Source of the DNA: Myxococcales bacterium 68-20
Lineage (GTDB): Bacteria; Myxococcota_A; Polyangia; Polyangiales; Polyangiaceae
Direction of reading: 5' to 3'
Length of the DNA stretch: 64,000 bases
Assembly (NCBI GenBank): GCA_001899635.1
Contig: MKVQ01000005.1
Span: 1 to 64,000 of the forward strand
Shown one piece after another: positions 43,996 to 58,210 of the stretch (position 1 is its first letter; each line of letters begins with the position of its first letter). The notes beneath the pieces are model-generated. The model made no database searches. It was not told where the DNA came from and saw nothing but the letters and a program-made list of their open reading frames with translations. The position numbers and the translations under genes are program-made.

Positions 43996-44028
43996 TCGTC
44001 GATCACGAGCGGCTACGGCTACTCACTC

Positions 44029-44991
44029 ATGGAAACCGTCTTCGTCAGCGGAACACTGCCTGGCGACGCGCTCGACGTCCTTCGCGAGGCGCCCTTCGAG
44101 GTCGTCCAGCACGAGGGCGGCGTCGCCTCGGATGCCTTCGCCGCGTGCGCCGATCGCGTCCGCGGGCTCGTCGCGCTGCTCACCGACCGGATCGACGACG
44201 CGCTGCTCGCGCGCGCACCGCGCCTCGCGATCGTCGCCAATGTCGCCGTCGGCGTCGATAACATCGACCTCGCTGCCTGCGCCGCGCGCAACGTCGTCGT
44301 GACGAACACGCCGGACGTGCTCACGGAGGCGACCGCGGATCTCGCGTTCGGCCTCCTCATCGACGCGGCGCGGCGCATCTCCGAAGGCGACCGGCTCGTC
44401 CGCGCCGGCGGCTGGCAGCGCTGGACGCCGACCTTCCACCTCGGCGCGCCCGTCCACGGGATGAAGCTCGGTCTCGTCGGCTTCGGTCGCATCGGCAAGG
44501 CGATGGCGCGGCGGGCGCGAGGGTTCGGCATGCACGTCGGCTACACGCAGCGCCGTCGTGAGCCCGAGGCCCTCGAGCGCGCGCTCGGGGCGACCTACGT
44601 GGCGTCGCTCGACGAGCTCTGCGCGACATCGGACGCGATCTCGCTGCACCTCCCGCTCACGCCCGAGTCACGACACCTGTTCGATGCGGCCCGCCTCGCG
44701 CGAATGCGTCCCGGATCGATCCTGGTGAACACGGCGCGCGGGCCGATCGTCGACGAGGCCGCGCTCGCTCACGCGCTCGAGCACGGCCCGCTCGCGGCCG
44801 CGGGTCTGGACGTGTTCGAGCACGAGCCGAAGGTCCATCCCGAGCTCCTCGCCCGCGAAAACTGCGTGCTCGCCCCGCACATCGGCAGCGCCGATCGCCC
44901 GACACGCGAGGCGATGTCCTCGCTCGCGGCCGCAAACGTGATCCGGATGCTGCAGGGCCAGCCGCCGCTCACGCCGATCAGGCCCGCCTAG
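44029..44991 (+). CDS. D-2-hydroxyacid dehydrogenase (glyoxylate/hydroxypyruvate reductase-like)
   Basis: 320 residues, usual length. NAD(P)-dependent reduction of 2-keto acids in the cytoplasm. Features: substrate-binding VGVDNIDLAACAARNVVV, GVFG-like Rossmann GLVGFGRIGKAMARRA (about 149-164) and the triad Arg in VNTARGPIVDE, Glu in HEPKVHP, His in LAPHIGSA. The residue after the second glycine and QRR in GYTQRRR suggest NADP preference, which is inference. Glyoxylate, hydroxypyruvate or 2-ketogluconate are likely substrates. It lies 33 bp after the M16 pair and may share its transcript. Confidence 0.92.
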   Translation: METVFVSGTLPGDALDVLREAPFEVVQHEGGVASDAFAACADRVRGLVALLTDRIDDALLARAPRLAIVANVAVGVDNIDLAACAARNVVVTNTPDVLTEATADLAFGLLIDAARRISEGDRLVRAGGWQRWTPTFHLGAPVHGMKLGLVGFGRIGKAMARRARGFGMHVGYTQRRREPEALERALGATYVASLDELCATSDAISLHLPLTPESRHLFDAARLARMRPGSILVNTARGPIVDEAALAHALEHGPLAAAGLDVFEHEPKVHPELLARENCVLAPHIGSADRPTREAMSSLAAANVIRMLQGQPPLTPIRPA

Positions 44992-45030
44992 AGCGTTCGC
45001 CTCCGCGCAGCGCCAGAGATAGAGACAACA

Positions 45031-45067
45031 GGAAGACGGGATGGATTTTTTTGATCCTCTCTCTTCC
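45031..45067. terminator. T/A-rich hairpin between convergent genes
   Basis: GGAAGA (45031-45036) pairs with TCTTCC (45062-45067); inside, GGAT (45043-45046) pairs with ATCC (45054-45057) around a seven-base T-rich loop. The seven-T run (45046-45052) stands out from the GC-rich surroundings. It lies between the dehydrogenase and biotin carboxylase ends. Confidence 0.4.
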
Positions 45068-45188
45068 GGCTGCTGCCCTCCTGTTCACGCTCCATCGCAG
45101 TCCTCTTCGCGCTCGAGGGTGGAGCGACGCGCAACGCTCGGATGGATAGCTGCCGCTCTCGAATGACAGCAGAGACCGCGACACTGGC

Positions 45189-46586
45189 TCAAGGGCGCTT
45201 CGCGAGAATCTCGGCGAACTTCGTATCGTAGTTGCCTGCGCGGAACTCCTCGCTCGCGAGGAGCTTCCGGACGAACGCGACGTTCGTCGTCGCGGGAGCG
45301 ATCACCGTGCCGGCGAGCGCGCGATCGAGCTCGCCGATCGCGGCGTCGCGGGTCTCGCCCCACGCCACGACCTTCGCGATCATCGGATCGTAGTACGGCG
45401 TGATCTTGCTGCCGGCCTTCACGCCGGACTCGACGCGCAGAACGCGGGACTGTACCTCGCCCGCGCCCCCGGCCCACACGAGCTCGTCGATCGACCCGGG
45501 CTTCGGGATGAAGCCCTTGCTCGGATCCTCCGCGTAGATGCGCGCCTCGATCGAGTGTCCCTTCCGCGTGAGGTTCGAGAGGTCGGGCAGCTTCTCGCCC
45601 GCCGCGACGCGGAGCTGGAGCTCGACGAGATCGAGACCGGTCACCATCTCCGTGACGGGGTGCTCGACCTGGAGGCGCGCGTTGACCTCGAGGAAGAAGA
45701 GGTTGCCCGCGTCATCGGCGATGAACTCGCACGTGCCCGCGCCGACGTAGCCGACCTTCTTCACCACGCGGAGCGCCGCGGCGTAGAGCTCCTGACGCCG
45801 CTTCTCGCCTTCGGGGCCCGCGAAGAACGCCGCCGGCGAGGGCGACTCCTCGACGATCTTCTGGTGGCGGCGCTGGACGCTGCACTCGCGTTCACCGAGC
45901 GCGAAGGCCTGCCCGTGGGTATCGCAGAACACCTGGACCTCGATGTGACGCGGCTGCGAGACGTAGCGCTCGAGGTAGACACGCGGGTCCGCGAAGCTGG
46001 CCTTGCCGCGATCGGAGCACGACTTGAGCGCGCGCTCGACACCGGCTTCGTCGGCGACGACCTGCATCCCGATGCCGCCACCGCCGCCGACCGCCTTCAC
46101 GACGATCGGGTAGCCGACGCTCGCCGCGATCGCCTTGGCGTGCGCGATGCCCTCGGGGGTGTCGATCGCGATCGGCTCGTCGGTCCCCGGCACCGGGCTC
46201 GTCCCTGCAGAGAGCGCGACGTGACGCGCCTTCATCTTGTCCCCGAACGCGTCGAGGGTGTCCGGCGACGGTCCGATGAAGACCGCCCCCGCGTCCGCGA
46301 CGGCGCGCGCGAACGCCGACTTCTCGCTCAGGAAGCCGTAGCCGGGATGCACCGCCTTTGCGCCCGTCTTCCGGAGCGCGCCGAGGATGGCGTCGACGTT
46401 CAGGTACGAGTCCTTGGGCGGCGCGGGGCCGACCAGGACCGCCTCGTCGGCATCGGTGACGTGCGGCGCATCGGGGTCCGCCTCGGAATGAACGGCGACC
46501 GTGGCGATGCCGAGTCGCTTGCAGGTTCGGATGACGCGGCGAGCAATCTCACCGCGGTTGCACACGAGGACCTTCTCGAAGGGCAT
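45189..46586 (-). CDS. accC: Biotin carboxylase subunit (acetyl/acyl-CoA carboxylase)
   Basis: 465 residues from ATG 46586; a frame open to 46928 is not used. It carboxylates biotin on a separate carrier protein using ATP and bicarbonate. Features: N-terminal KVLVCNRGEIARRVIRT, KAVHPGYGFLSEKSAFARA, ATP-grasp glycine loop KAVGGGGGIGM, CSVQRRHQKIVEESPSPA, FLEVNARLQVEHPVTEM, and the biotin site region. No biotinyl (BCCP) or carboxyltransferase domain is attached. It acts in fatty acid or propionyl/acyl-CoA metabolism. No partner genes are nearby. It is 97 bp downstream of the GGDEF gene, on the same strand. Confidence 0.95.
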   Translation of the reverse strand: MPFEKVLVCNRGEIARRVIRTCKRLGIATVAVHSEADPDAPHVTDADEAVLVGPAPPKDSYLNVDAILGALRKTGAKAVHPGYGFLSEKSAFARAVADAGAVFIGPSPDTLDAFGDKMKARHVALSAGTSPVPGTDEPIAIDTPEGIAHAKAIAASVGYPIVVKAVGGGGGIGMQVVADEAGVERALKSCSDRGKASFADPRVYLERYVSQPRHIEVQVFCDTHGQAFALGERECSVQRRHQKIVEESPSPAAFFAGPEGEKRRQELYAAALRVVKKVGYVGAGTCEFIADDAGNLFFLEVNARLQVEHPVTEMVTGLDLVELQLRVAAGEKLPDLSNLTRKGHSIEARIYAEDPSKGFIPKPGSIDELVWAGGAGEVQSRVLRVESGVKAGSKITPYYDPMIAKVVAWGETRDAAIGELDRALAGTVIAPATTNVAFVRKLLASEEFRAGNYDTKFAEILAKRP

Positions 46587-46683
46587 GGCGCTCGATGGCT
46601 CCGTCGACCGACGTCGACTTCGATGTGGAGGGTCGGGTTCATCCCGAAATAGCATGCTCGGAAGGGCGTGGTCATGAGGCGCC

Positions 46684-47775
46684 TCAGCTCCCCCCGCCGA
46701 CTCCGGGGTCCGACGGGCGCGGCGTCGGCGTGGCGACCGCGACGCGGTTTCGCCCGAGCCGCTTCGCCTCGTACATCGCCTCGTCTGCACGTTGCTCGAG
46801 CTGCTCCGGGGTCTCGCGCCGATCCCAGGTCGCGACGCCGATCGACACCGTCTGCCGGATGCGGAGACCTCCGTCGATCTCGAGGTCCTCGGCCGCGAGC
46901 GTCTGCTGGATCCGGCTCGCAGAGGCATGCGCTTGCGTCGCGCCCGTCGCCGGCATGACGAGGACGAACTCCTCCCCGCCGCGCCGCACGAGGATGTCGA
47001 CGCGGCGGACAGCCTTACGGACGCGATCGGCGAAGAGGCGGAGCACGACGTCGCCAGCCGCGTGGCCGTGCTTGTCGTTGACGGACTTGAAGTGATCGAG
47101 GTCCATGTAGAGGAGCGAGAGGTCTCCGCCCGATCGGGTGGCGCGCTCCATCTCCTCCAAGATGCGCGGGACGAGATAGCGATGGTTGAAAGCCAGCGTC
47201 ATGTCGTCGAACATCGCGAGGCGCCGGAGGCGCGCCCGCTCGATCGGCGGGGCCGAGCAGTTCGCGAGGAGACGCAGCATCAGCTGTTCGTCGTTGCCGA
47301 AGGCCTTCCCGTTCGGCGATGTCACCGCGAGGACGCCGATCACCTCGCCGCTCGACCAGAGCGGCTCGGCCATGATCGAGCGCACCGGAAAGCTCAGTGG
47401 CTTGCCGCGAACCCAGCGCGGATCCTCGTCGACCTCGTCGATCCGGACCGGCTGCCCGTGCTCGACGACCCATCCGAGGACGCCCTCGTCTCGCCGGAAC
47501 TCCATCGGTCGGCCGATGTCGCCGGTCCCCGACCGAGCTCCGGAGAGGAGCATCGATCGCGAGGTATCGAGCAGACGGATGCTCGCGTGATGGGCGCCCA
47601 GCATCTCGCGCGCCGCGTTCGTCACCGCCTCGAGGAAATCCTCGAGCGGCAGGTCGCCGGTGAGCTGCGCGGTGAGCTGCAGGAGGATCTCGAGGGTCCT
47701 CTCCGGATCACGCGTCGGGGTGGCCGGTATGCTCGAGCTCAACCCGGCGAGCATAGCCGAGCTTGCCCTCTGCAC
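46684..47775 (-). CDS. GAF-GGDEF diguanylate cyclase
   Basis: 363 residues from GTG 47775 (ATG 47754 is an alternative). A GAF domain spans about 25-180 (FLEAVTNAAREMLGAHHASIRL, GVLGWVVEHGQPVRIDEVDED, SIMAEPLWSSGEVIGVLAV). The GGDEF domain spans about 190-350: DDMTLAFNHRYL, YMDLDHFKSVNDKHGHAAGD, the active site RRGGEEFVLVMP, and DEAMYEAKRLGRNRV. The RRVD four residues before the signature is a full RxxD inhibitory site, so the enzyme should make c-di-GMP with product feedback. No membrane segment. It starts 12 bp after the dnaE2 stop on the same strand, so may be read from the imuA promoter. Confidence 0.95.
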   Translation of the reverse strand: MQRASSAMLAGLSSSIPATPTRDPERTLEILLQLTAQLTGDLPLEDFLEAVTNAAREMLGAHHASIRLLDTSRSMLLSGARSGTGDIGRPMEFRRDEGVLGWVVEHGQPVRIDEVDEDPRWVRGKPLSFPVRSIMAEPLWSSGEVIGVLAVTSPNGKAFGNDEQLMLRLLANCSAPPIERARLRRLAMFDDMTLAFNHRYLVPRILEEMERATRSGGDLSLLYMDLDHFKSVNDKHGHAAGDVVLRLFADRVRKAVRRVDILVRRGGEEFVLVMPATGATQAHASASRIQQTLAAEDLEIDGGLRIRQTVSIGVATWDRRETPEQLEQRADEAMYEAKRLGRNRVAVATPTPRPSDPGVGGGS

Positions 47776-47787
47776 ACACCGCTCGCT

Positions 47788-51402
<3,615 letters not shown>

Positions 51403-51420
51403 CGCTCCCTGCCTCGCCCT

Positions 51421-53169
51421 TCAGTCGAACCAACCGCGCACGCGCATCGCGCCGGTCGTGCGGTCGATCTCGAGCATCGCTGCGCCGTCGTCGGTCCACG
51501 CCTGGACGTAGTCCACGGCGCCTCTCCGCGCGCTCGAGCCGTTCGCCTCCCCACTCTTCTCCCGCGGCGCGGCCTTCCACCACTCGATGGACTCGAGGCG
51601 CGACAGGTGCCGCGTGACGCGAACGCCCTCGCGCGCGATCGGACGCGGCTCGGTGAGGAGACGGGTGGGCTCGGGGACGCTCGCCAGCATGCGCCGCTTC
51701 CTCTTGGTGTTCCCCCTCGAGCTGCCCGTCGTGTCCCGCGCGCTCTTCGCAGTGGCTTCGAACGCGACGAGGCGGGAGCGCTCTTCGGGCACCCAGCTGT
51801 CGCCGAGGACGAGCGAGGTGACCGCCTCGGGTCCGAGATCGGAGACGAGCTCGGCCACGAGCCGCGGCAGTGCCCGCTCGGCCTTGGGCTGCGGCTCGAA
51901 GAGCGAGAGCGCCGCCGCTCGCTTGTGGACGAGCACGGGGGCACGCAGCTTCGCGCCGAGCACCGGGGCGGCGAGGACGAGACGCTCGATCTTCGGGCGA
52001 AGCGCAGCGAGGAGATCGCTCGCAGCCCCGAGCGGCGCGGGCAGATCGAGCTCGACGAGGGCGACGCGGCTCTCGCCGTTTCGTCCTTCGCCGGGCGGGT
52101 CGGTCGCGATCGACGACCCGGCCTCGCGGAGCATCGCCGCGTCGAGGAGGAGCTCGAGCTCGAGACGCGCAGCCGCGACCGCGCGGCCTTGGAGGCGTGC
52201 CGAGAGCCGATCGGTGAGCGTCTTCGCGACGAACGTGAGCGCCTGCGTCCCCTCGATGCCGTACTCGAGCTCGGCTTCTTCTTCCGGGATCTCGGGCGGA
52301 ACGTAGGGCGCGAGCGGCGCGCGGTCGTCGCCGTCGACGAGCGAGAGCACGTCACGGGCGCGCGCGCCGAGCCGGGCCCCGAGGCCGGCGCGCGGCAGGG
52401 CCCGCATCTCCTCGATGGTGCGAACGCCGACCTTCGCGAGCCAGCGGACGTCCTCGGCAGGCAGCGGCAGCGCGGCGACGGCGAGCGAAGCGATGGCCCG
52501 TGCGTTGTCCCCCGGGCGCACGACGAGCGGCTCGAGATCGAGAAGCGCGCTCGCCGATGAGCGCCGACTCCGCGATCCGAGGGCCGCGCGCGCTGCGGAC
52601 TCCGCCCGAGCGCGCGCGAGCATCGCGGCGACGCGCGGCCCGTCGGCGATCGCGACGGCACAGGTGTGACCGAGCGACGTGATCACGCCGGCGAGACGCG
52701 AGGCGAGGATCGTCTCGCCGTCGAAGATGGACGACGACGAACGCGGCGCATGCAGATGCGCGCAGCCGGTCACGTCGATCCACACGATGTCACCGAAGCC
52801 GGGCGTGAAACTCGAAGGCCGAACGACCTCGCCATCCATGCTGCTCGAGAACGAGACCGTGGCTCCGAACGCGAGGCCCACCTCGGCGAGGCGGGCAAGG
52901 ACGTCATGGACCGCGTCTGGCCGGACGACGCGAACGGCGAGATCGCCTGCGCGCGCCCGTGCCTGCGCGATCGTCTGGCCCGGCAAGACGCCGAGCGCTC
53001 GCGCCTCGCGCGAGACGACCGACAGCCGCGTGTTGCCGAGGAGCTTCGCCTCCGTCATCGGTGGAGACGCGACGACGACGGCAAGAGGTCGCTCGGCGCT
53101 CGCCGGATCCAGATCTGCACGCACGAGCTCGATCCGGAGCTCGGGCAGGCTCACCGCACAGACGCGCAT
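51421..53169 (-). CDS. imuB: Y-family-like mutasome subunit ImuB
   Basis: 582 residues from ATG 53169. ImuB is a Y-family polymerase relative without catalytic residues that links DnaE2 to the beta clamp. Here the N-terminal block RVCAVSLPELRIELVRADL has no acidic catalytic pair (polymerases read DxDxFF there). GVLPGQTIAQARAR, SFTPGFGDIVWIDVTGC and the thumb-like section VGVRTIEEMRALPRAGLGAR are family features. The long C-terminal part has the clamp/ImuA-interaction region. It overlaps imuA by 19 bp and precedes dnaE2 by 18 bp. Confidence 0.94.
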   Translation of the reverse strand: MRVCAVSLPELRIELVRADLDPASAERPLAVVVASPPMTEAKLLGNTRLSVVSREARALGVLPGQTIAQARARAGDLAVRVVRPDAVHDVLARLAEVGLAFGATVSFSSSMDGEVVRPSSFTPGFGDIVWIDVTGCAHLHAPRSSSSIFDGETILASRLAGVITSLGHTCAVAIADGPRVAAMLARARAESAARAALGSRSRRSSASALLDLEPLVVRPGDNARAIASLAVAALPLPAEDVRWLAKVGVRTIEEMRALPRAGLGARLGARARDVLSLVDGDDRAPLAPYVPPEIPEEEAELEYGIEGTQALTFVAKTLTDRLSARLQGRAVAAARLELELLLDAAMLREAGSSIATDPPGEGRNGESRVALVELDLPAPLGAASDLLAALRPKIERLVLAAPVLGAKLRAPVLVHKRAAALSLFEPQPKAERALPRLVAELVSDLGPEAVTSLVLGDSWVPEERSRLVAFEATAKSARDTTGSSRGNTKRKRRMLASVPEPTRLLTEPRPIAREGVRVTRHLSRLESIEWWKAAPREKSGEANGSSARRGAVDYVQAWTDDGAAMLEIDRTTGAMRVRGWFD

Positions 53170-54038
53170 TGCTCGATCCGATCACGTGAAAGCGTCTGCG
53201 TCTGCGTCTCGTGGATGGGAGTGGGAGTGGGAGTGGGAGTGGATTCGAAGGAGGGAGTCTGGTCGAGGAGCCGCACGACGTGCGCAGACGAGCCACCGCC
53301 GCGGCGATCCTTGGTCACCCGGAGCGAGAGCGCGTTCGGACGGCGCTCGACCTCGATACGCATCGCGACCGGCCAGGGCACGGAGCGCGGCGAGAGCGCG
53401 CTCGTGAGGAGAAGCGACGAGGTCCCGCTCTCCTCGGCCGCGAGGGCCAGCTTGCGGACCACGACCGCGCCCGCATCGTGGGCTCCCCCCAGCTCCGCTG
53501 CACCGCGCGAGGACTTCGAGGACGACCTGGTGACGCCGAAGTCGTTCCGGTGCGGGACATCGATGACGATCAGCGCAAACGCTCCCGACGCGGCGACCTT
53601 CACCACGGTGCGTGCGAGCGCCTGCGGCGAAGGCCGAACGACGAGCAAGCGATCGAGATCGACGCCCGCCTGCACGAGCGCCGGCGCATAGAGCGACGGC
53701 ATGCCCGCATGCGCCGGCGTGATCCACGCGCACCACGCATGCTCGTCCGCCGCGTGCACCGAGCGCATCGCCGAGATGGCGATCGTCGTCGCGCCGCCGC
53801 GCATCGACTCCGGACAGCGCAGAGCGGAGGCTGCGTGCGAGGCCTTGCCGTGAAGACGCGGGAGCGCCGCGATCTCTACGACCCCACGCGGCAACCCTTG
53901 GTCGGGGAGCGCATCTTCGAGCTCTGGCCAGCCGAGCGCGAGGACCTCGCGCGCAGGAAGGAGGGCCTCGGTTCCCTGGAGGACGCCCAGGCGCGCGAGC
54001 GCCGTTGCATCGAGGTGCGAGGTGGCCAGCGCCGACAT
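53151..54038 (-). CDS. imuA: Mutasome protein ImuA (RecA-like)
   Basis: 295 residues from ATG 54038 (a TTG at 54098 would place the LexA-like box inside the gene and is rejected). ImuA is a RecA-fold protein without a Walker motif that assists ImuB. Features: GTEALLPAREVLALGWPELEDALP, the short loop QGLPRGVVEIAALP in the Walker position, YAPALVQAGVDLDRLLVVRP, GAFALIVIDVP, and SLRVTKDRRGGG. The C-terminus has hexanucleotide-encoded repeats TPTPTPTP and TQTQT. It is the first gene of the three-gene cassette, with the SOS-like box just before the ATG. Confidence 0.92.
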   Translation of the reverse strand: MSALATSHLDATALARLGVLQGTEALLPAREVLALGWPELEDALPDQGLPRGVVEIAALPRLHGKASHAASALRCPESMRGGATTIAISAMRSVHAADEHAWCAWITPAHAGMPSLYAPALVQAGVDLDRLLVVRPSPQALARTVVKVAASGAFALIVIDVPHRNDFGVTRSSSKSSRGAAELGGAHDAGAVVVRKLALAAEESGTSSLLLTSALSPRSVPWPVAMRIEVERRPNALSLRVTKDRRGGGSSAHVVRLLDQTPSFESTPTPTPTPIHETQTQTLSRDRIEQCASVR

Positions 54039-54039
54039 A

Positions 54040-54055
54040 CTGAACACACTATCAG
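54040..54055 (-). promoter_or_regulatory. LexA-like SOS box over the imuA -10 region
   Basis: On the minus strand CTGATAGTGTGTTCAG (54055 to 54040) has the CTG-N10-CAG plan; arms extend to TACTGA/TCAGTA. As I recall it the M. xanthus LexA motif is CTRHAMRYBYGTTCAGS; this sequence agrees at 15 of 17 positions. TTGCGC (54074-54069) and TAGTGT (54051-54046) have 17 bp between them, so the box lies on the -10. The predicted start then falls at or next to the imuA ATG (54038), suggesting a leaderless mRNA. Confidence 0.7.
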
Positions 54056-54307
54056 TACCCTTGTCCCTGCGCAAGGTCGCGGCTCTTTTAATAACCAATC
54101 TGGCAACTTACGACCCATCCACGCACAGTGGTGGGCCTTCGCCCTGCGCGAGGTCCGAAGACCCGAGGTCGGGCGCGCCCCCCAGCTCGTGAGCTTGCTT
54201 GGAGGGGGCTCGATGGCTGGACGGGCTCCCCTCCGATAGCTACGTGGCGGATGGATCCCGCCACCTTCGATCGGTCCTGCAAGCTCGGGCGTCACTTGAT
54301 TACTTTA

Positions 54308-54333
54308 GTTATCTTTTTGCGCTAAAAGATAAC
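54308..54333. promoter_or_regulatory. Operator-like palindrome abutting the hipB start
   Basis: GTTATCTTTT (54308-54317) and AAAAGATAAC (54324-54333) pair perfectly around TGCGCT, four bases before the hipB GTG. The sequence is AT-rich in GC-rich surroundings. HipB-type proteins bind TATC...GATA palindromes of this kind (E. coli uses TATCC-N8-GGATA), so autoregulation of hipBA is likely. No good -35/-10 pair with correct spacing is apparent. Confidence 0.65.
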
Positions 54334-54337
54334 CATC

Positions 54338-54733
54338 GTGAGCTTTTCAACCGGATCGACGCTACGCAGTGCACGCCGCGCAGCAGGGCTCAGCCAGGAA
54401 GACCTGGCCGCTCGTGCTGGGCTCTCACGCATGACGGTGCAGAAGCTCGAGGCCGGCAGCATCGATCCACGGATGTCGACCATCGCCGTGCTCCTGCGCG
54501 TCCTCGGACTGGAGCTGATGCTCGTCCCCGCGGGACTGAAACCCGCCGTCGAAGACTTCCTCCAGTCGGGCGGTCGCATCGTGGCGCAGCCGGCCGGTGT
54601 CGGCGCCCCGGCGTCCATCGTCGAGGTCCTCTCCCGCATGCCGCACGCGAAGAAGACGAAGAGGAAGCAGAAGAAGAGCGCGACCGGAGAGCCGCTCACG
54701 CAGCAGGAACGGAGCAACCGGCGTAAGCAATGA
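54338..54733 (+). CDS. hipB: HipB-like antitoxin / repressor (XRE HTH)
   Basis: 131 residues from GTG 54338. An XRE helix-turn-helix occupies 6-70: LRSARRAAGLSQEDLAARAG, LSRMTVQKLEAGSIDPRMST, VLLRVLGLELMLVPAG. The tail (75-131) is basic, with KKTKRKQKKS and NRRKQ, and may cover HipA or DNA. In this family it represses its own operon and neutralises HipA. No ribosome site is visible and the start is four bases after an operator-like palindrome. Its stop overlaps the hipA ATG (ATGA), the standard coupling for this system. Confidence 0.9.
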   Translation: MSFSTGSTLRSARRAAGLSQEDLAARAGLSRMTVQKLEAGSIDPRMSTIAVLLRVLGLELMLVPAGLKPAVEDFLQSGGRIVAQPAGVGAPASIVEVLSRMPHAKKTKRKQKKSATGEPLTQQERSNRRKQ

Positions 54734-56031
54734 CGATCTCGATCCGCTACCTGCGCCTCTACTTGCACGTGCCGAGCGGCGATCGTCGCCCGATCGGATA
54801 CCTCTCGCAGTTCGGCGACATCCTCCGTGTCTCGTTCGACGAGAGCTACATCGAAGACGCGTCCCGACCGACGCTGTCGCTGATGTTCCGTGGCGCGACC
54901 GAGGCCGACACGAAGGCGATCCTTCGCTCGACGCGCGACGTACGACTCGTGCGAAGCGATGGACACTGGCCGAGCTGGTTCGCGAACCTGCTCCCCGAGG
55001 GACACAACCGCGAGCGCCTGGCGCGCGAACGCGGTTGCGAGGTCGATGACGACTTCGAGCTCCTCGCCGCCGCCGGGCGCGACCTCGCCGGCGCGGTGGA
55101 GGTCGAGCCCGTACCGGTGGCCGACAAGATCCCCGAGTCCGTGCTCGCGTGGCACGCCGCGATGGGCATCGACGTCACCCATCCCGAGGTCGTCGCGAGC
55201 CCGGTCGAGGACGCCGCGAGCCTCGCCGGAGTCGTGACCAAGTTCTCGGCGATCAAGGACGGCCGACGCTACATCGTGAAGCGCCACGGAAGACCGGGCG
55301 CGTACATCCTCAAGCTGCCCTCGTCACGCCACCCGGATCTCGTCGACAACGAGCTGACTGGCTATCGGCTCGCCGGAAGCCTGGGGCTCGATTGTGCCGA
55401 GGCCGCACGCATTCCGTTGAGCGAAGCCGAGCTGCCCGAGCAGGTGGAGTTTCCGCACGTGCTCGCGGTGAAGCGCTTCGATCGCGGTCCCGACGGGCGG
55501 CGCGTCCACATGGAGGAGCTGGCGCAAGCGATGGGGTACACGCCGCGAGAGAAGTACGGACGCGGGCTCGCGACCGATCTGCCGACGATGCTGCGCCTGC
55601 TCGATCGCCTGTCCGCACGTCCGGCAAACGACGTGCGCGAGGTCGTTCGCCGTCTCGTGGCCTTCGTGCTCATGGGCAACGCCGACGCGCACCTCAAGAA
55701 CTGGGCGCTCGTCTATCCGACCGGTGACGCGCCCGTGCTCTCACCGCTCTACGATCCGGTCTGCGTCACGGCGTGGTTCGACGAGCTCGCACCGCACGAA
55801 TATGCGCTCAACCGGAAGGTGGATCGCGCGCTCTCGGAGCTCGACTGGCCGGACCTGCGCGCGCTGCTCGACACGGCGGGCGTGCCGCGCTCGTCGCGCC
55901 TCGTCCAGATCGCGAAGGACACGGTCAAGCAGGCCAAGGCGACGTGGCCCACCGTGTTGCGCGACGCGCCGGACAACCTGCGCACCTCGATCGAAACGCG
56001 CCTCGCGGGTGGTGTCGCGCTCGCGCGTTAG
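54730..56031 (+). CDS. hipA: HipA-like Ser/Thr kinase toxin
   Basis: 433 residues, normal HipA length. HipA phosphorylates a target (glutamyl-tRNA synthetase in E. coli), causing growth arrest. Features: N-subdomain GYLSQFGDILRVSFDESYI; the autophosphorylation loop SLAGVVTKFSAI; Lys in YILKLPSSRHPDL; VLAVKRFDRGPDGRRVHMEE; catalytic VLMGNADAHLKNWALVY (Asp and Asn present); DFG-equivalent LSPLYDPVCV. All key residues are there, so it should be active unless bound by HipB. The pair's codons are as GC-rich as the neighbours. Confidence 0.92.
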   Translation: MTISIRYLRLYLHVPSGDRRPIGYLSQFGDILRVSFDESYIEDASRPTLSLMFRGATEADTKAILRSTRDVRLVRSDGHWPSWFANLLPEGHNRERLARERGCEVDDDFELLAAAGRDLAGAVEVEPVPVADKIPESVLAWHAAMGIDVTHPEVVASPVEDAASLAGVVTKFSAIKDGRRYIVKRHGRPGAYILKLPSSRHPDLVDNELTGYRLAGSLGLDCAEAARIPLSEAELPEQVEFPHVLAVKRFDRGPDGRRVHMEELAQAMGYTPREKYGRGLATDLPTMLRLLDRLSARPANDVREVVRRLVAFVLMGNADAHLKNWALVYPTGDAPVLSPLYDPVCVTAWFDELAPHEYALNRKVDRALSELDWPDLRALLDTAGVPRSSRLVQIAKDTVKQAKATWPTVLRDAPDNLRTSIETRLAGGVALAR

Positions 56032-56192
56032 GGGCTGCCCCACGTTGGGCCGCTCCGACTGAGCGGATGCCCAGTACCTCGACCGCACGAGGCGCCGGTC
56101 GCCGCCGATGACTCAGCCGCAGGCGGGACAGGCCCTGGCCGTTCGGCGACATACAAGATGGTTCTTTCGAACGCCGGCGCTAGATAGGAAGC

Positions 56193-57074
56193 GTGGACGC
56201 CTCTTTGGCAATGCCCGACGACCCCCGCCTCGACCGCCTCGTTGCCATCCTCAAGGAGATGGGCTCGGTGCTCGTCTGCTACTCGGGCGGCATCGACAGC
56301 GCCTTCGTGCTCGCCGTGGCGCATCGCGTGCTGGGCGAGAACTGCATCGGGATGACCGCGGTGAGCCCGAGCCTGGCGCCCTTCGAGCTCGAGGACGCCG
56401 TATCGATCGCGCGCGGCATCGGCGCTCGGCACGAGCTCGTCGACTCACACGAGATCGACGACGAGGCATACGCGAAGAACGACGTCGATCGGTGCTTCCA
56501 CTGCAAGAGCGAGCTCTACCGACTGAGCGCGAAGAAGCAGGCCGACTGGCAAATCGCCCACGTCGTCAACGGCACCAACCTCGACGATCTCGGCGACTAC
56601 CGCCCCGGCCTCGAGGCCGCCAAAGAGGCCGGCGCCCGGAGCCCGCTCGTGGAGGCGCAGCTGACGAAGGCGGACGTTCGCAGCCTCGCGCAGGCGATCG
56701 GGCTCGGGATCTGGGACAAGCCTGCCGCCGCATGCCTCTCGAGCCGCCTCCCCTACGGCACCCGCGTCACCCGCGAGCGCCTCGCTCAGATCGGATCGCT
56801 GGAGGACGAGCTCCACAAGCTCGGAATCCGTCAGGCGCGCGTGCGCTGGCACGCTTCGTCGAGCGAGACCGTCACCGCGACGAAGGAAGCGGCGATCGCG
56901 CGCATCGAGATCGGCCGTGACGAGATGCTGAAGGCGTTCGACGCCCGCGACGCGATCGTGGCCGCAGGCAAGCGCCTCGGCTTCGCGTACGTGACCCTCG
57001 ACCTCGCGGGCTACCGCACCGGCAGCCACAACGAGGTGCTCACGTCGCGCCGAACGCTCCCCGTCCTGTCCTGA
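56193..57074 (+). CDS. larE: ATP-dependent sacrificial sulfur transferase LarE
   Basis: 293 residues from GTG 56193; ATG 56211 is a good alternative (the usual LarE start is about RLVAILKEMGS). LarE donates sulfur for the nickel-pincer cofactor of lactate racemase. The PP-loop SGGIDSAFVLAVAHRVLGE is at about 30-48. The Cys pair RCFHCKSELY (about 107-116) and AACLSSRLPYGTRVTRERL (Cys near 180, the donor position) are present. Without larA, B or C beside it, it may serve another enzyme. It is 162 bp after hipA and not obviously linked to it. Confidence 0.88.
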   Translation: MDASLAMPDDPRLDRLVAILKEMGSVLVCYSGGIDSAFVLAVAHRVLGENCIGMTAVSPSLAPFELEDAVSIARGIGARHELVDSHEIDDEAYAKNDVDRCFHCKSELYRLSAKKQADWQIAHVVNGTNLDDLGDYRPGLEAAKEAGARSPLVEAQLTKADVRSLAQAIGLGIWDKPAAACLSSRLPYGTRVTRERLAQIGSLEDELHKLGIRQARVRWHASSSETVTATKEAAIARIEIGRDEMLKAFDARDAIVAAGKRLGFAYVTLDLAGYRTGSHNEVLTSRRTLPVLS

Positions 57075-57136
57075 GCGAAGCGCCACCCGCGCGCCGCCCC
57101 CCGAAGCGCGCGCGAACGGTCGTCATCCTCATCCAC

Positions 57137-58210
57137 TCATCCAGGGCGCTGCGAGCGCCACGTGCGCGCGACCGTCTGGACGATCGGGATCCGCGCGAGC
57201 GGGTTCGGATGCGTCCGGAGGAACTGCACCGGATTGAGAAGACTGAGCGGCCCGCCGCCTCCGCCCGCGGACTCGATCCGCGCGAAGTAGTCGAGGAGGA
57301 GGACGCCGCCGGTCTCCGACCACTCGTATTGCGGACGGCGCGCGCGCCCGGCGTCGAGCGCGTTGACCGCACCGGCGGAGTCCGACGCGGCCTCGCCCGC
57401 CTGGTTGAACAGCGGCACGACGGAGAGCAGCCGGCCGAGGCGCGCCGGATCGGGCGCGTTGCCCATCGCCTGCCCCTTCGCACAGCCGGTATGCCCGAGG
57501 TAGTGATGGGCGAGCTCGTGGCCGAACGTGAACGCGATGATGTCGTCGAAGAGCTCGCGGGCACGTGACCAGCGACGCGCATCGCCGCCGAACTGCGCCG
57601 GGATGATCCCGGCGGGCAGCGCCGCGCGCGCATTGGGGTTCCGCACCATCTGGGGCAGGACCGCGTTGCAGTAGGCGTCGTACGTCTTCGTGCCGAAGAG
57701 CTCGTCGGTCGCCTTCGTCTGCGCGATCGCGTCGACGGCCTCGAGCATGCCCGTCGTCGCGGCGAGGAACGGCGTTCCCTGCTCGTCGCATCCGGCGAAC
57801 GCGTTGACCTCGAGCGTGGGATCGAACGTCAGCGGGATGCCACGCACGAGCGACTGGTTCTGCGGCGACAGCACGTTGATCAGCTCCGCGAGGATGTTCC
57901 GCACCTCCTGCTGCTGCGCGGCCACACCGATGAGCGGCGGGAGCAGCGGACGCTGGGCGACCGGCGGGGGCTGCTGCGGGTACGGCTGCTGCGGGTACGG
58001 CTGCTGCGGGTACGGCTGCTGCGGATACGGCTGCTGCGGATACGGCTGCTGCGGGTACGGCTGCTGCGGATACGGCTGCTGCGGAGCCGTCGACGCCTGG
58101 GTCGACGTTCGACACGCCCCCGCTCCGAGCGAGAGCCCGGCGACGAGCACAGCCGTTCCACACGAGCGCAAGAACCGAGAGGAGAAGAGCGGAAGCTTCA
58201 GCACGACCAA
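57137..58210 (-). CDS. M48-type zinc peptidase lipoprotein with PQQPY repeats
   Basis: 357 residues. The lipobox LSLGAGAC gives lipid Cys33. A disordered linker of seven PQQPY units plus PQQPPP follows (about 44-85). The peptidase domain starts near 95 and has HELAHHYLGH with two His and catalytic Glu, and EAASDSAGAVNA, where the third ligand Glu is followed by a Asp as in M48 family members. Cys-containing DAYCNAVLP and GCAKGQAMG loops are nearby. The end is basic (RTWRSQRPG). It probably acts in the periplasm on misfolded or envelope proteins. The gene is isolated; the kinase lies 177 bp upstream. Confidence 0.9.
   Translation of the reverse strand: MVVLKLPLFSSRFLRSCGTAVLVAGLSLGAGACRTSTQASTAPQQPYPQQPYPQQPYPQQPYPQQPYPQQPYPQQPYPQQPPPVAQRPLLPPLIGVAAQQQEVRNILAELINVLSPQNQSLVRGIPLTFDPTLEVNAFAGCDEQGTPFLAATTGMLEAVDAIAQTKATDELFGTKTYDAYCNAVLPQMVRNPNARAALPAGIIPAQFGGDARRWSRARELFDDIIAFTFGHELAHHYLGHTGCAKGQAMGNAPDPARLGRLLSVVPLFNQAGEAASDSAGAVNALDAGRARRPQYEWSETGGVLLLDYFARIESAGGGGGPLSLLNPVQFLRTHPNPLARIPIVQTVARTWRSQRPG
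57971..58075 (-). repeat. 15-bp tandem repeat (PQQPY)
   Basis: Seven units of CTGCTGCGG(G/A)TACGG at 57971-58075, coding PQQPY in the M48 lipoprotein. Units differ at one position (GGG or GGA). Copy number could change in frame. Confidence 0.9.

What the first reader, a model, noticed from the sequence alone, without database searches (positions are those of the whole stretch)
46684..54038. Diguanylate cyclase 12 bp behind the SOS mutasome genes
Seen: imuA, imuB and dnaE2 overlap or abut, and a GAF-GGDEF gene with intact RRVD and GGEEF begins 12 bp after dnaE2 on the same strand; accC follows 97 bp on. If it is read from the LexA-controlled promoter, c-di-GMP output would rise with DNA damage, linking mutagenesis to surface or developmental behaviour. 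I do not know of this arrangement as a described system.
Basis: inference. Interest (0 to 1): 0.5.

Follow-up and report, generated by a model that had tools for sequence, protein, structure and literature searches.

The report
Diguanylate cyclase behind SOS mutasome genes
In one group of bacteria related to myxobacteria, a gene for making the signal molecule cyclic di-GMP sits directly behind the genes that cause mutations after DNA damage; the arrangement is real and inherited, but the evidence does not show that damage controls the signal gene.

Summary
In detail: imuA, imuB, dnaE2 and an intact GAF-GGDEF gene lie in tandem, the longest cyclase reading starting 12 bp after dnaE2. A LexA-type box abuts imuA (25.6 bits; next best site in the window 9.8), and a like box precedes recA. 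An orthologue occurs in 34 of 108 family genomes, behind dnaE2 in 13 of these 34, all in one clade. Against a dedicated damage-to-c-di-GMP operon: four same-genus genomes with dnaE2 lack the cyclase, including the two nearest by DnaE2, and in three of the four accC sits 18-90 bp behind dnaE2; a neighbouring clade keeps the cyclase near CoA-transferase genes; -10-like elements are enriched before the cyclase (own TATGCT, 47755-47750) but not before imuB; no strong LexA box precedes the non-adjacent orthologues. Most likely the cyclase has its own weak promoter and also receives some LexA-controlled read-through. A damage response is plausible but undemonstrated.

The parts
54039..54056 (-). LexA-type palindrome ACTGATAGTGTGTTCAGT immediately 5' of the imuA ATG
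   Evidence: 2 mismatches to the M. xanthus SOS box CTRHAMRYBYGTTCAGS (consensus seen in PMC9705874); 25.6 bits on a family-derived matrix that includes it, next best window site 9.8
53151..54038 (-). imuA (RecA-like accessory gene of the mutasome)
   Evidence: ImuA_translesion 1.4e-11, below the curated cut-off; order conserved in relatives
51421..53169 (-). imuB (IMS domain)
   Evidence: IMS 7.5e-07
47788..51402 (-). dnaE2, error-prone polymerase
   Evidence: PRK05672, 1247.7 bits against a cut-off of 939
47776..47787 (-). 12-bp gap between the dnaE2 stop and the GTG of the cyclase ORF; no terminator-like site, and none of the 12 best LexA-like window sites lies here
47750..47755 (-). candidate -10 element TATGCT of a separate cyclase promoter (inside the longest ORF reading)
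   Evidence: p=0.07 alone; combined p 4e-5 over 13 adjacent orthologues, which are related rows; for the place
46684..47775 (-). GAF-GGDEF diguanylate cyclase with RRVD and GGEEF; start GTG 47775, ATG 47754 or TTG 47742
45189..46586 (-). accC-like biotin carboxylase, 97 bp after the cyclase; neighbour, probably not part of the unit
   Evidence: 18-90 bp behind dnaE2 in three relatives without the cyclase

Best explanation
A LexA-controlled imuA-imuB-dnaE2 cassette is followed by a conserved, probably active GAF-GGDEF diguanylate cyclase. The cyclase came to lie behind dnaE2 probably once, in an ancestor of several genera of one family (inferred from tree and synteny). It is probably transcribed from its own weak promoter at the start of the gene and in addition receives read-through from the LexA-controlled transcript, because it is co-directional, close and not preceded by a recognisable terminator. 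A modest rise of the cyclase after DNA damage is therefore expected, but the position is more likely inherited than kept as a dedicated damage output. Shown: gene order, LexA-type box, intact motifs, one clade, losses, -10 enrichment. Inferred: LexA binding, transcription, enzyme activity, damage response.
For: Gene order and gaps. LexA-type boxes before imuA or, where dnaE2 has no imuAB just upstream, before dnaE2: a box ahead of the unit in 9 of 13 adjacent genomes, none found in 2 (G020, G087), not testable in 2 (G012, G065, contig ends); the boxes were picked by eye. A like box lies before recA of this genome between TTGACA and TATAGT. 13 of 34 orthologue-bearing family genomes have the cyclase behind dnaE2; in 11 of 13 a possible start lies within about 90 bp. 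All 13 keep RxxD and GG[DE]EF. dN/dS 0.28-0.34 in 4 same-genus pairs. Tree: the 13 adjacent rows fall in one clade of 15 (97/92). -10-like elements: combined p 4e-5 (13 adjacent loci), 0.007 (24 non-adjacent loci), against 0.40 (18 imuB starts) and 0.90 (9 dnaE2 starts chosen as in-operon).
Against: The own-genome -10 candidate is p=0.07 alone, and the strict sigma-70 scan of 45000-54400 found no promoter at all; only 3 of 13 adjacent loci are below 0.05 alone; the combined p treats related rows as independent; the matrix was recalled from E. coli. LexA control itself is by motif only: in M. xanthus a recN site with two differences from the same consensus was not bound by LexA (PMC9705874, passage), and the imuA box here also has two. 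There are no expression data for this genome.
Confidence: 0.5

Rival explanations
1. Dedicated output: the cyclase is a functional fourth gene of the SOS mutasome operon, expressed mainly from the LexA promoter, so DNA damage raises c-di-GMP and switches motility, biofilm or development.
For: Close co-directional spacing in 11 of 13 genomes. The cyclase stays behind dnaE2 where no imuAB was found in the fetched upstream stretch (G001, G002, G035, G116) and where the far flank is smc, accC, a kinase-like gene or, in G002, none of these. A LexA-type box ahead of the unit in 9 of 13.
Against: -10 enrichment before the cyclase. No strong LexA box before the non-adjacent orthologues. Cyclase missing in G003, G006 (nearest by DnaE2), G008 and G010, which keep dnaE2. 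In G004 the cyclase is present with no dnaE2 in the 1.7 kb upstream; dnaE2 was not found in that 72%-complete genome. Other neighbours are conserved too.
Confidence: 0.2
2. Independent neighbour: the cyclase is transcribed only from its own promoter for an unrelated purpose; its place behind dnaE2 is an accident preserved with the syntenic block.
For: smc lies convergent downstream of dnaE2 in genomes without the cyclase (14 bp away in G023; within about 1.4-2.6 kb in G016, G017, G029) and downstream of the cyclase in G020, G035, G065, G087, G116. In a neighbouring clade 6 genomes share an upstream gene near the cyclase, a CoA-transferase pair in G030. accC is 90, 71 and 18 bp behind dnaE2 in G003, G006, G010; in G008, the fourth, no accC was found in the locus. 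-10 enrichment.
Against: No terminator-like site between the genes, so some read-through is expected. The cyclase stayed with dnaE2 while the far flank varied within the genus.
Confidence: 0.28

Closest known systems
imuA-imuB-dnaE2 mutagenesis cassette (Caulobacter and mycobacteria, as SOS cassette: recalled; Myxococcus xanthus)
   Same: Same three genes, LexA-type box at the head; the box fits the M. xanthus consensus CTRHAMRYBYGTTCAGS at 15 of 17 positions (PMC9705874, passages).
   Different: A GAF-GGDEF gene is appended. In M. xanthus imuA and imuB form an operon and dnaE2 is activated by DdiA, directly or indirectly (PMC12288472, passages); among LexA-repressed genes there only recA2 and lexA had fully matching boxes (PMC9705874, passage).
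pafB-pafC-cyaA operon of M. xanthus
   Same: A nucleotide-cyclase gene in an operon whose promoter has an SOS box (PMC9705874, abstract and passages).
   Different: Adenylate, not diguanylate, cyclase; LexA bound that box weakly; no mutasome genes.
LexA-linked c-di-GMP turnover in Dinoroseobacter shibae
   Same: A proposed SOS to c-di-GMP link (PMC6473078, passages).
   Different: LexA sites were predicted in silico and tied to c-di-GMP breakdown, in an alphaproteobacterium, not to a synthase behind dnaE2.
Diguanylate cyclase of PDB entry 4zmu (P. aeruginosa GAF-GGDEF protein Dcsbis: recalled)
   Same: Best sequence match among solved structures; covers positions 25-331 of the 340-position profile, E 4.4e-41.
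   Different: Different gene context; the ligand of the GAF domain here is unknown.

Membership tests
Diguanylate cyclase (GGDEF) | GGDEF domain with GG[DE]EF active-site motif | tested here: met
   Pfam PF00990 2e-40; GGEEF in the window, GG[DE]EF in 12 of 12 adjacent relatives
Diguanylate cyclase (GGDEF) | Allosteric I-site RxxD five residues before GG[DE]EF | tested here: met
   RRVDILVRRGGEEF; RxxD in 13 of 13 adjacent genomes, own included
Diguanylate cyclase (GGDEF) | Synthesis of c-di-GMP from GTP | not testable with these tools
   needs an enzyme assay
ImuA-ImuB-DnaE2 SOS mutasome | Three genes present and collinear | tested here: met
   the ImuA match is below the NCBIfam cut-off and ImuB rests on the IMS domain and position
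ImuA-ImuB-DnaE2 SOS mutasome | LexA box at the promoter | tested here: met
   by motif only: 25.6 bits at 54040-54055, 2 mismatches to the M. xanthus consensus; like box before recA; LexA binding not tested
ImuA-ImuB-DnaE2 SOS mutasome | Damage-inducible, LexA-dependent transcription | not testable with these tools
   needs expression data
SOS regulon (cyclase gene) | LexA box in its own upstream region | tested here: not met
   best site 8.5 bits or less in the 450 bp (94 bp in L134) before 36 of 36 relative cyclases; true-site leave-one-out scores 13-27; the lexA gene's own weak site scores 8.4, so a weak box is not excluded
SOS regulon (cyclase gene) | Co-transcription with dnaE2 | not testable with these tools
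   needs RT-PCR across the junction; no terminator-like site found

The most novel reading that the evidence does not exclude
In one family of myxobacterial relatives the SOS mutasome transcript carries a diguanylate cyclase, so that induction of error-prone repair and a rise of c-di-GMP (surface attachment, development) are one switch: cells mutate and settle at the same time.
Probability: 0.18. Interest if true: 0.65.

Novelty: new variant of a known kind. Interest (0 to 1): 0.32.

Why it matters
If the cyclase is damage-inducible, it would join mutagenesis and lifestyle in one transcript in relatives of bacteria known for surface motility and development, and a single junction RT-PCR could test it. 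If not, it is a clear example of how close co-directional spacing and conservation can arise from inherited gene order, with accC and CoA-transferase genes as comparisons.

Tried and rejected
Rejected: a strong LexA box of the cyclase's own. Rejected: LexA boxes near the other GGDEF genes of this genome: the 17 sites of CTGNNNNNNYGTTCAG compared by eye with the GGDEF places; apart from the window's own site the nearest were about 13 and 18 kb off. That pattern is not enriched over its reversed control (17 against 16), nor is the wider palindrome (32 against 39), so most such sites are chance; the recA and imuA sites stand out by place. The named-genome scan was swamped by general GGDEF genes: the first 4 of its 80 loci look like this family. 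Rfam: nothing in 44000-58000. Sigma-70 promoter scan of 45000-54400: 0 sites, 0.5 expected. The published consensus alone does not single out the imuA boxes of most relatives (shuffle p up to about 0.5); the family matrix was built from 19 sites, the own one included, that I picked by eye mostly, so it is partly circular. The search for dnaE2 over the whole family failed twice, so dnaE2 places are known only for genomes and for fetched loci; the match list was cut. Structure prediction was not run: it would not separate the explanations.
Full report
Observation. The gene order is as described. On the minus strand imuA (54038-53151) overlaps imuB (53169-51421) by 19 bp, dnaE2 (51402-47788) follows after 18 bp, the GAF-GGDEF ORF (47775-46684) after 12 bp and an accC-like gene (46586-45189) after 97 bp. 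Domain searches agree. The cyclase has RRVD and GGEEF with the I-site spacing. Its start is uncertain: GTG 47775, ATG 47754 and TTG 47742 are in frame, and homologue N-termini fit the TTG best, so the real gap may be 45 bp.

SOS control of the cassette. An 18-bp palindrome at 54039-54056 abuts the imuA ATG. It fits the M. xanthus SOS box at 15 of 17 positions (consensus in PMC9705874, passages seen). On a matrix of 19 family sites, itself included, it scores 25.6 bits; the next best site in the 64-kb window scores 9.8. The recA gene of this genome has a like box between TTGACA and TATAGT; lexA has only a weak one, 8.4 bits. In six relatives a box lies just before dnaE2: G001, G002, G007, G009, G035, G116. 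In G009 imuAB lie upstream with a box of their own and a 1.6-kb gap before dnaE2; in G001, G002, G035 and G116 no imuAB was found in the fetched 3.4-5.7 kb upstream; in G007 the contig ends about 190 bp before dnaE2. Against this: LexA binding is inferred from the motif alone. In M. xanthus a recN site with two differences from the consensus was not bound by LexA, and a pafBC site was bound weakly (PMC9705874, passage); the imuA box here has two differences as well.

Distribution of the cyclase. 34 of 108 family genomes hold an orthologue at E<=1e-55; in the own genome the next best match scores 126.9 bits against 793.8 and is 34% identical. Of the 34, 13 have it behind dnaE2 on the same strand: own, G001, G002, G005, G007, G009, G011 of the same genus, and G012, G020, G035, G065, G087, G116 of six other genera. 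A possible start lies within about 90 bp of dnaE2 in 11 of 13; G116 has 350-430 bp, and G001 about 0.9 kb with no ATG, GTG or TTG found before the homologous part. In the other 21 genomes (24 loci) no dnaE2 was found in the fetched stretch before the cyclase; locus L134 begins only 94 bp before it and cannot be judged. Among the 36 genus and family genomes (own included) dnaE2 was found in 34 (not G004, G028); of these 34, 15 have the orthologue, 10 adjacent and 5 not (G018, G025, G030, G033, G034), and 19 have none at that threshold. In the order, 53 of 183 genomes match the profile at E<=1e-75, 20 of them outside the family. For 7 of these 20 a dnaE2 place is known: in 6 (G036, G037, G043, G047, G050, G057) the cyclase is elsewhere; in G053 dnaE2 runs off its contig and adjacency is not excluded.

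Evolution. In a tree of 37 orthologues the 13 adjacent rows fall in one clade of 15 (97/92); the other two rows are G004 and the long-branch G059. A single origin is the simplest reading, though the label needs three changes on the tree, which may be one gain and two losses. dN/dS is 0.28-0.34 in four same-genus pairs, so the gene is under purifying selection. It is dispensable: G003, G006, G008 and G010 of the same genus keep dnaE2 and have no cyclase at the locus or in the genome at the thresholds used.

Synteny comparison. Divergent larE lies next to imuA in relatives (LarE identity of the window gene). Convergent smc lies downstream of dnaE2 without a cyclase in G016, G017, G023 and G029: 14 bp away in G023, within about 1.4-2.6 kb in the other three. 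It lies downstream of the cyclase in G020, G035, G065, G087 and G116 (SMC confirmed by NCBIfam for G023 only). So the cyclase was probably inserted between dnaE2 and smc; this is inference. In the window's genus the far side holds accC (own, G005, G009), a kinase-like gene (G001, G007, G011; label by eye) or neither (G002). Of the four same-genus genomes without the cyclase, accC lies 90, 71 and 18 bp behind dnaE2 in G003, G006 and G010, and was not found in the locus of G008. In a neighbouring clade, six genomes (G018, G030, G085, G090, G108, G109) share homologous sequence within the 2.5 kb before the cyclase; in G030 it is a CoA-transferase pair directly before it. So close, co-directional, conserved neighbours occur here without an evident shared function. 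For the opposite view: the cyclase stayed with dnaE2 while the far flank varied and where imuAB is not upstream.

Own promoter. Orthologues, adjacent or not, often show a TANNNT element just before the start codon. In 100 nt before a fixed anchor, the best -10-like score against dinucleotide shuffles gives a combined p of 4e-5 for 13 adjacent loci (3 of 13 below 0.05 alone) and 0.007 for 24 non-adjacent loci (3 of 24), against 0.40 for imuB starts (18 usable of 32 loci given) and 0.90 for 9 dnaE2 starts that I chose as in-operon. Positive controls gave 0.049 (19 imuA of the same 32 loci) and 0.040 (6 dnaE2 with a box of their own), so the test is weak even for real promoters. In the window the element is TATGCT, 47755-47750, p=0.07. 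The rows are related and the matrix is an E. coli one from memory, and a strict sigma-70 scan found no promoter in 45000-54400; this is suggestive only. No terminator-like site was found on the minus strand there.

LexA and the cyclase. No site above 8.5 bits lies in the 450 bp before any of 36 relative cyclases (94 bp in L134), where picked boxes score 13-27 when left out; since lexA's own site scores 8.4, weak boxes are not excluded. No strict box lies within 12 kb of the other GGDEF genes found in this genome. The cyclase is therefore most likely damage-regulated, if at all, by read-through.

Literature. 'diguanylate cyclase' + 'dnaE2' (3 papers), 'GGDEF' + 'imuB' (3), 'diguanylate cyclase' + 'SOS regulon' (13), a c-di-GMP, DNA damage and mitomycin search (7) and a c-di-GMP, SOS response and LexA search (29, of which 20 listed) gave no title or abstract start that describes this arrangement; the full texts were not read. 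Nearest precedents are the M. xanthus pafBC-cyaA operon (PMC9705874) and LexA-linked c-di-GMP turnover in Dinoroseobacter (PMC6473078), both seen as passages.

Verdict. A real, clade-specific gene order behind a cassette with a LexA-type box. The regulatory idea is testable but is weakened by the synteny comparison, by the losses and by the candidate separate promoter.

Noticed in passing
54338-56031: An XRE-HipA (HipBA-like) pair lies between larE (56193-57074) and the imuA promoter, divergent from imuA. No match at E<=1e-10 in 36 relative dnaE2 loci, of which about 9 show the whole larE-imuA interval.
   Followed up: partly
54033-54056: The imuA ATG directly abuts the LexA-type box, as the assumed start does in four relatives (L038, L039, L040, L044), so the true imuA start or a leaderless transcript is an open question.
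   Followed up: no
L146 3671-4144 (own genome, contig C24): A 157-aa ORF without Pfam match begins 6 bp after a strong LexA-type box (23.3 bits): a possible unknown SOS gene. Other ORFs overlap it.
   Followed up: partly
47788-51402: DnaE2 carries a low-complexity insert at about residues 633-690, where the alignments of several relatives break.
   Followed up: no
L038, L040: The two closest relatives by DnaE2 (G003, G006) have no cyclase at the locus or in the genome at E<=1e-55.
   Followed up: yes
L036 2528-3446 (minus strand): In G001 about 0.9 kb separates dnaE2 from the cyclase; it may hold another gene.
   Followed up: no
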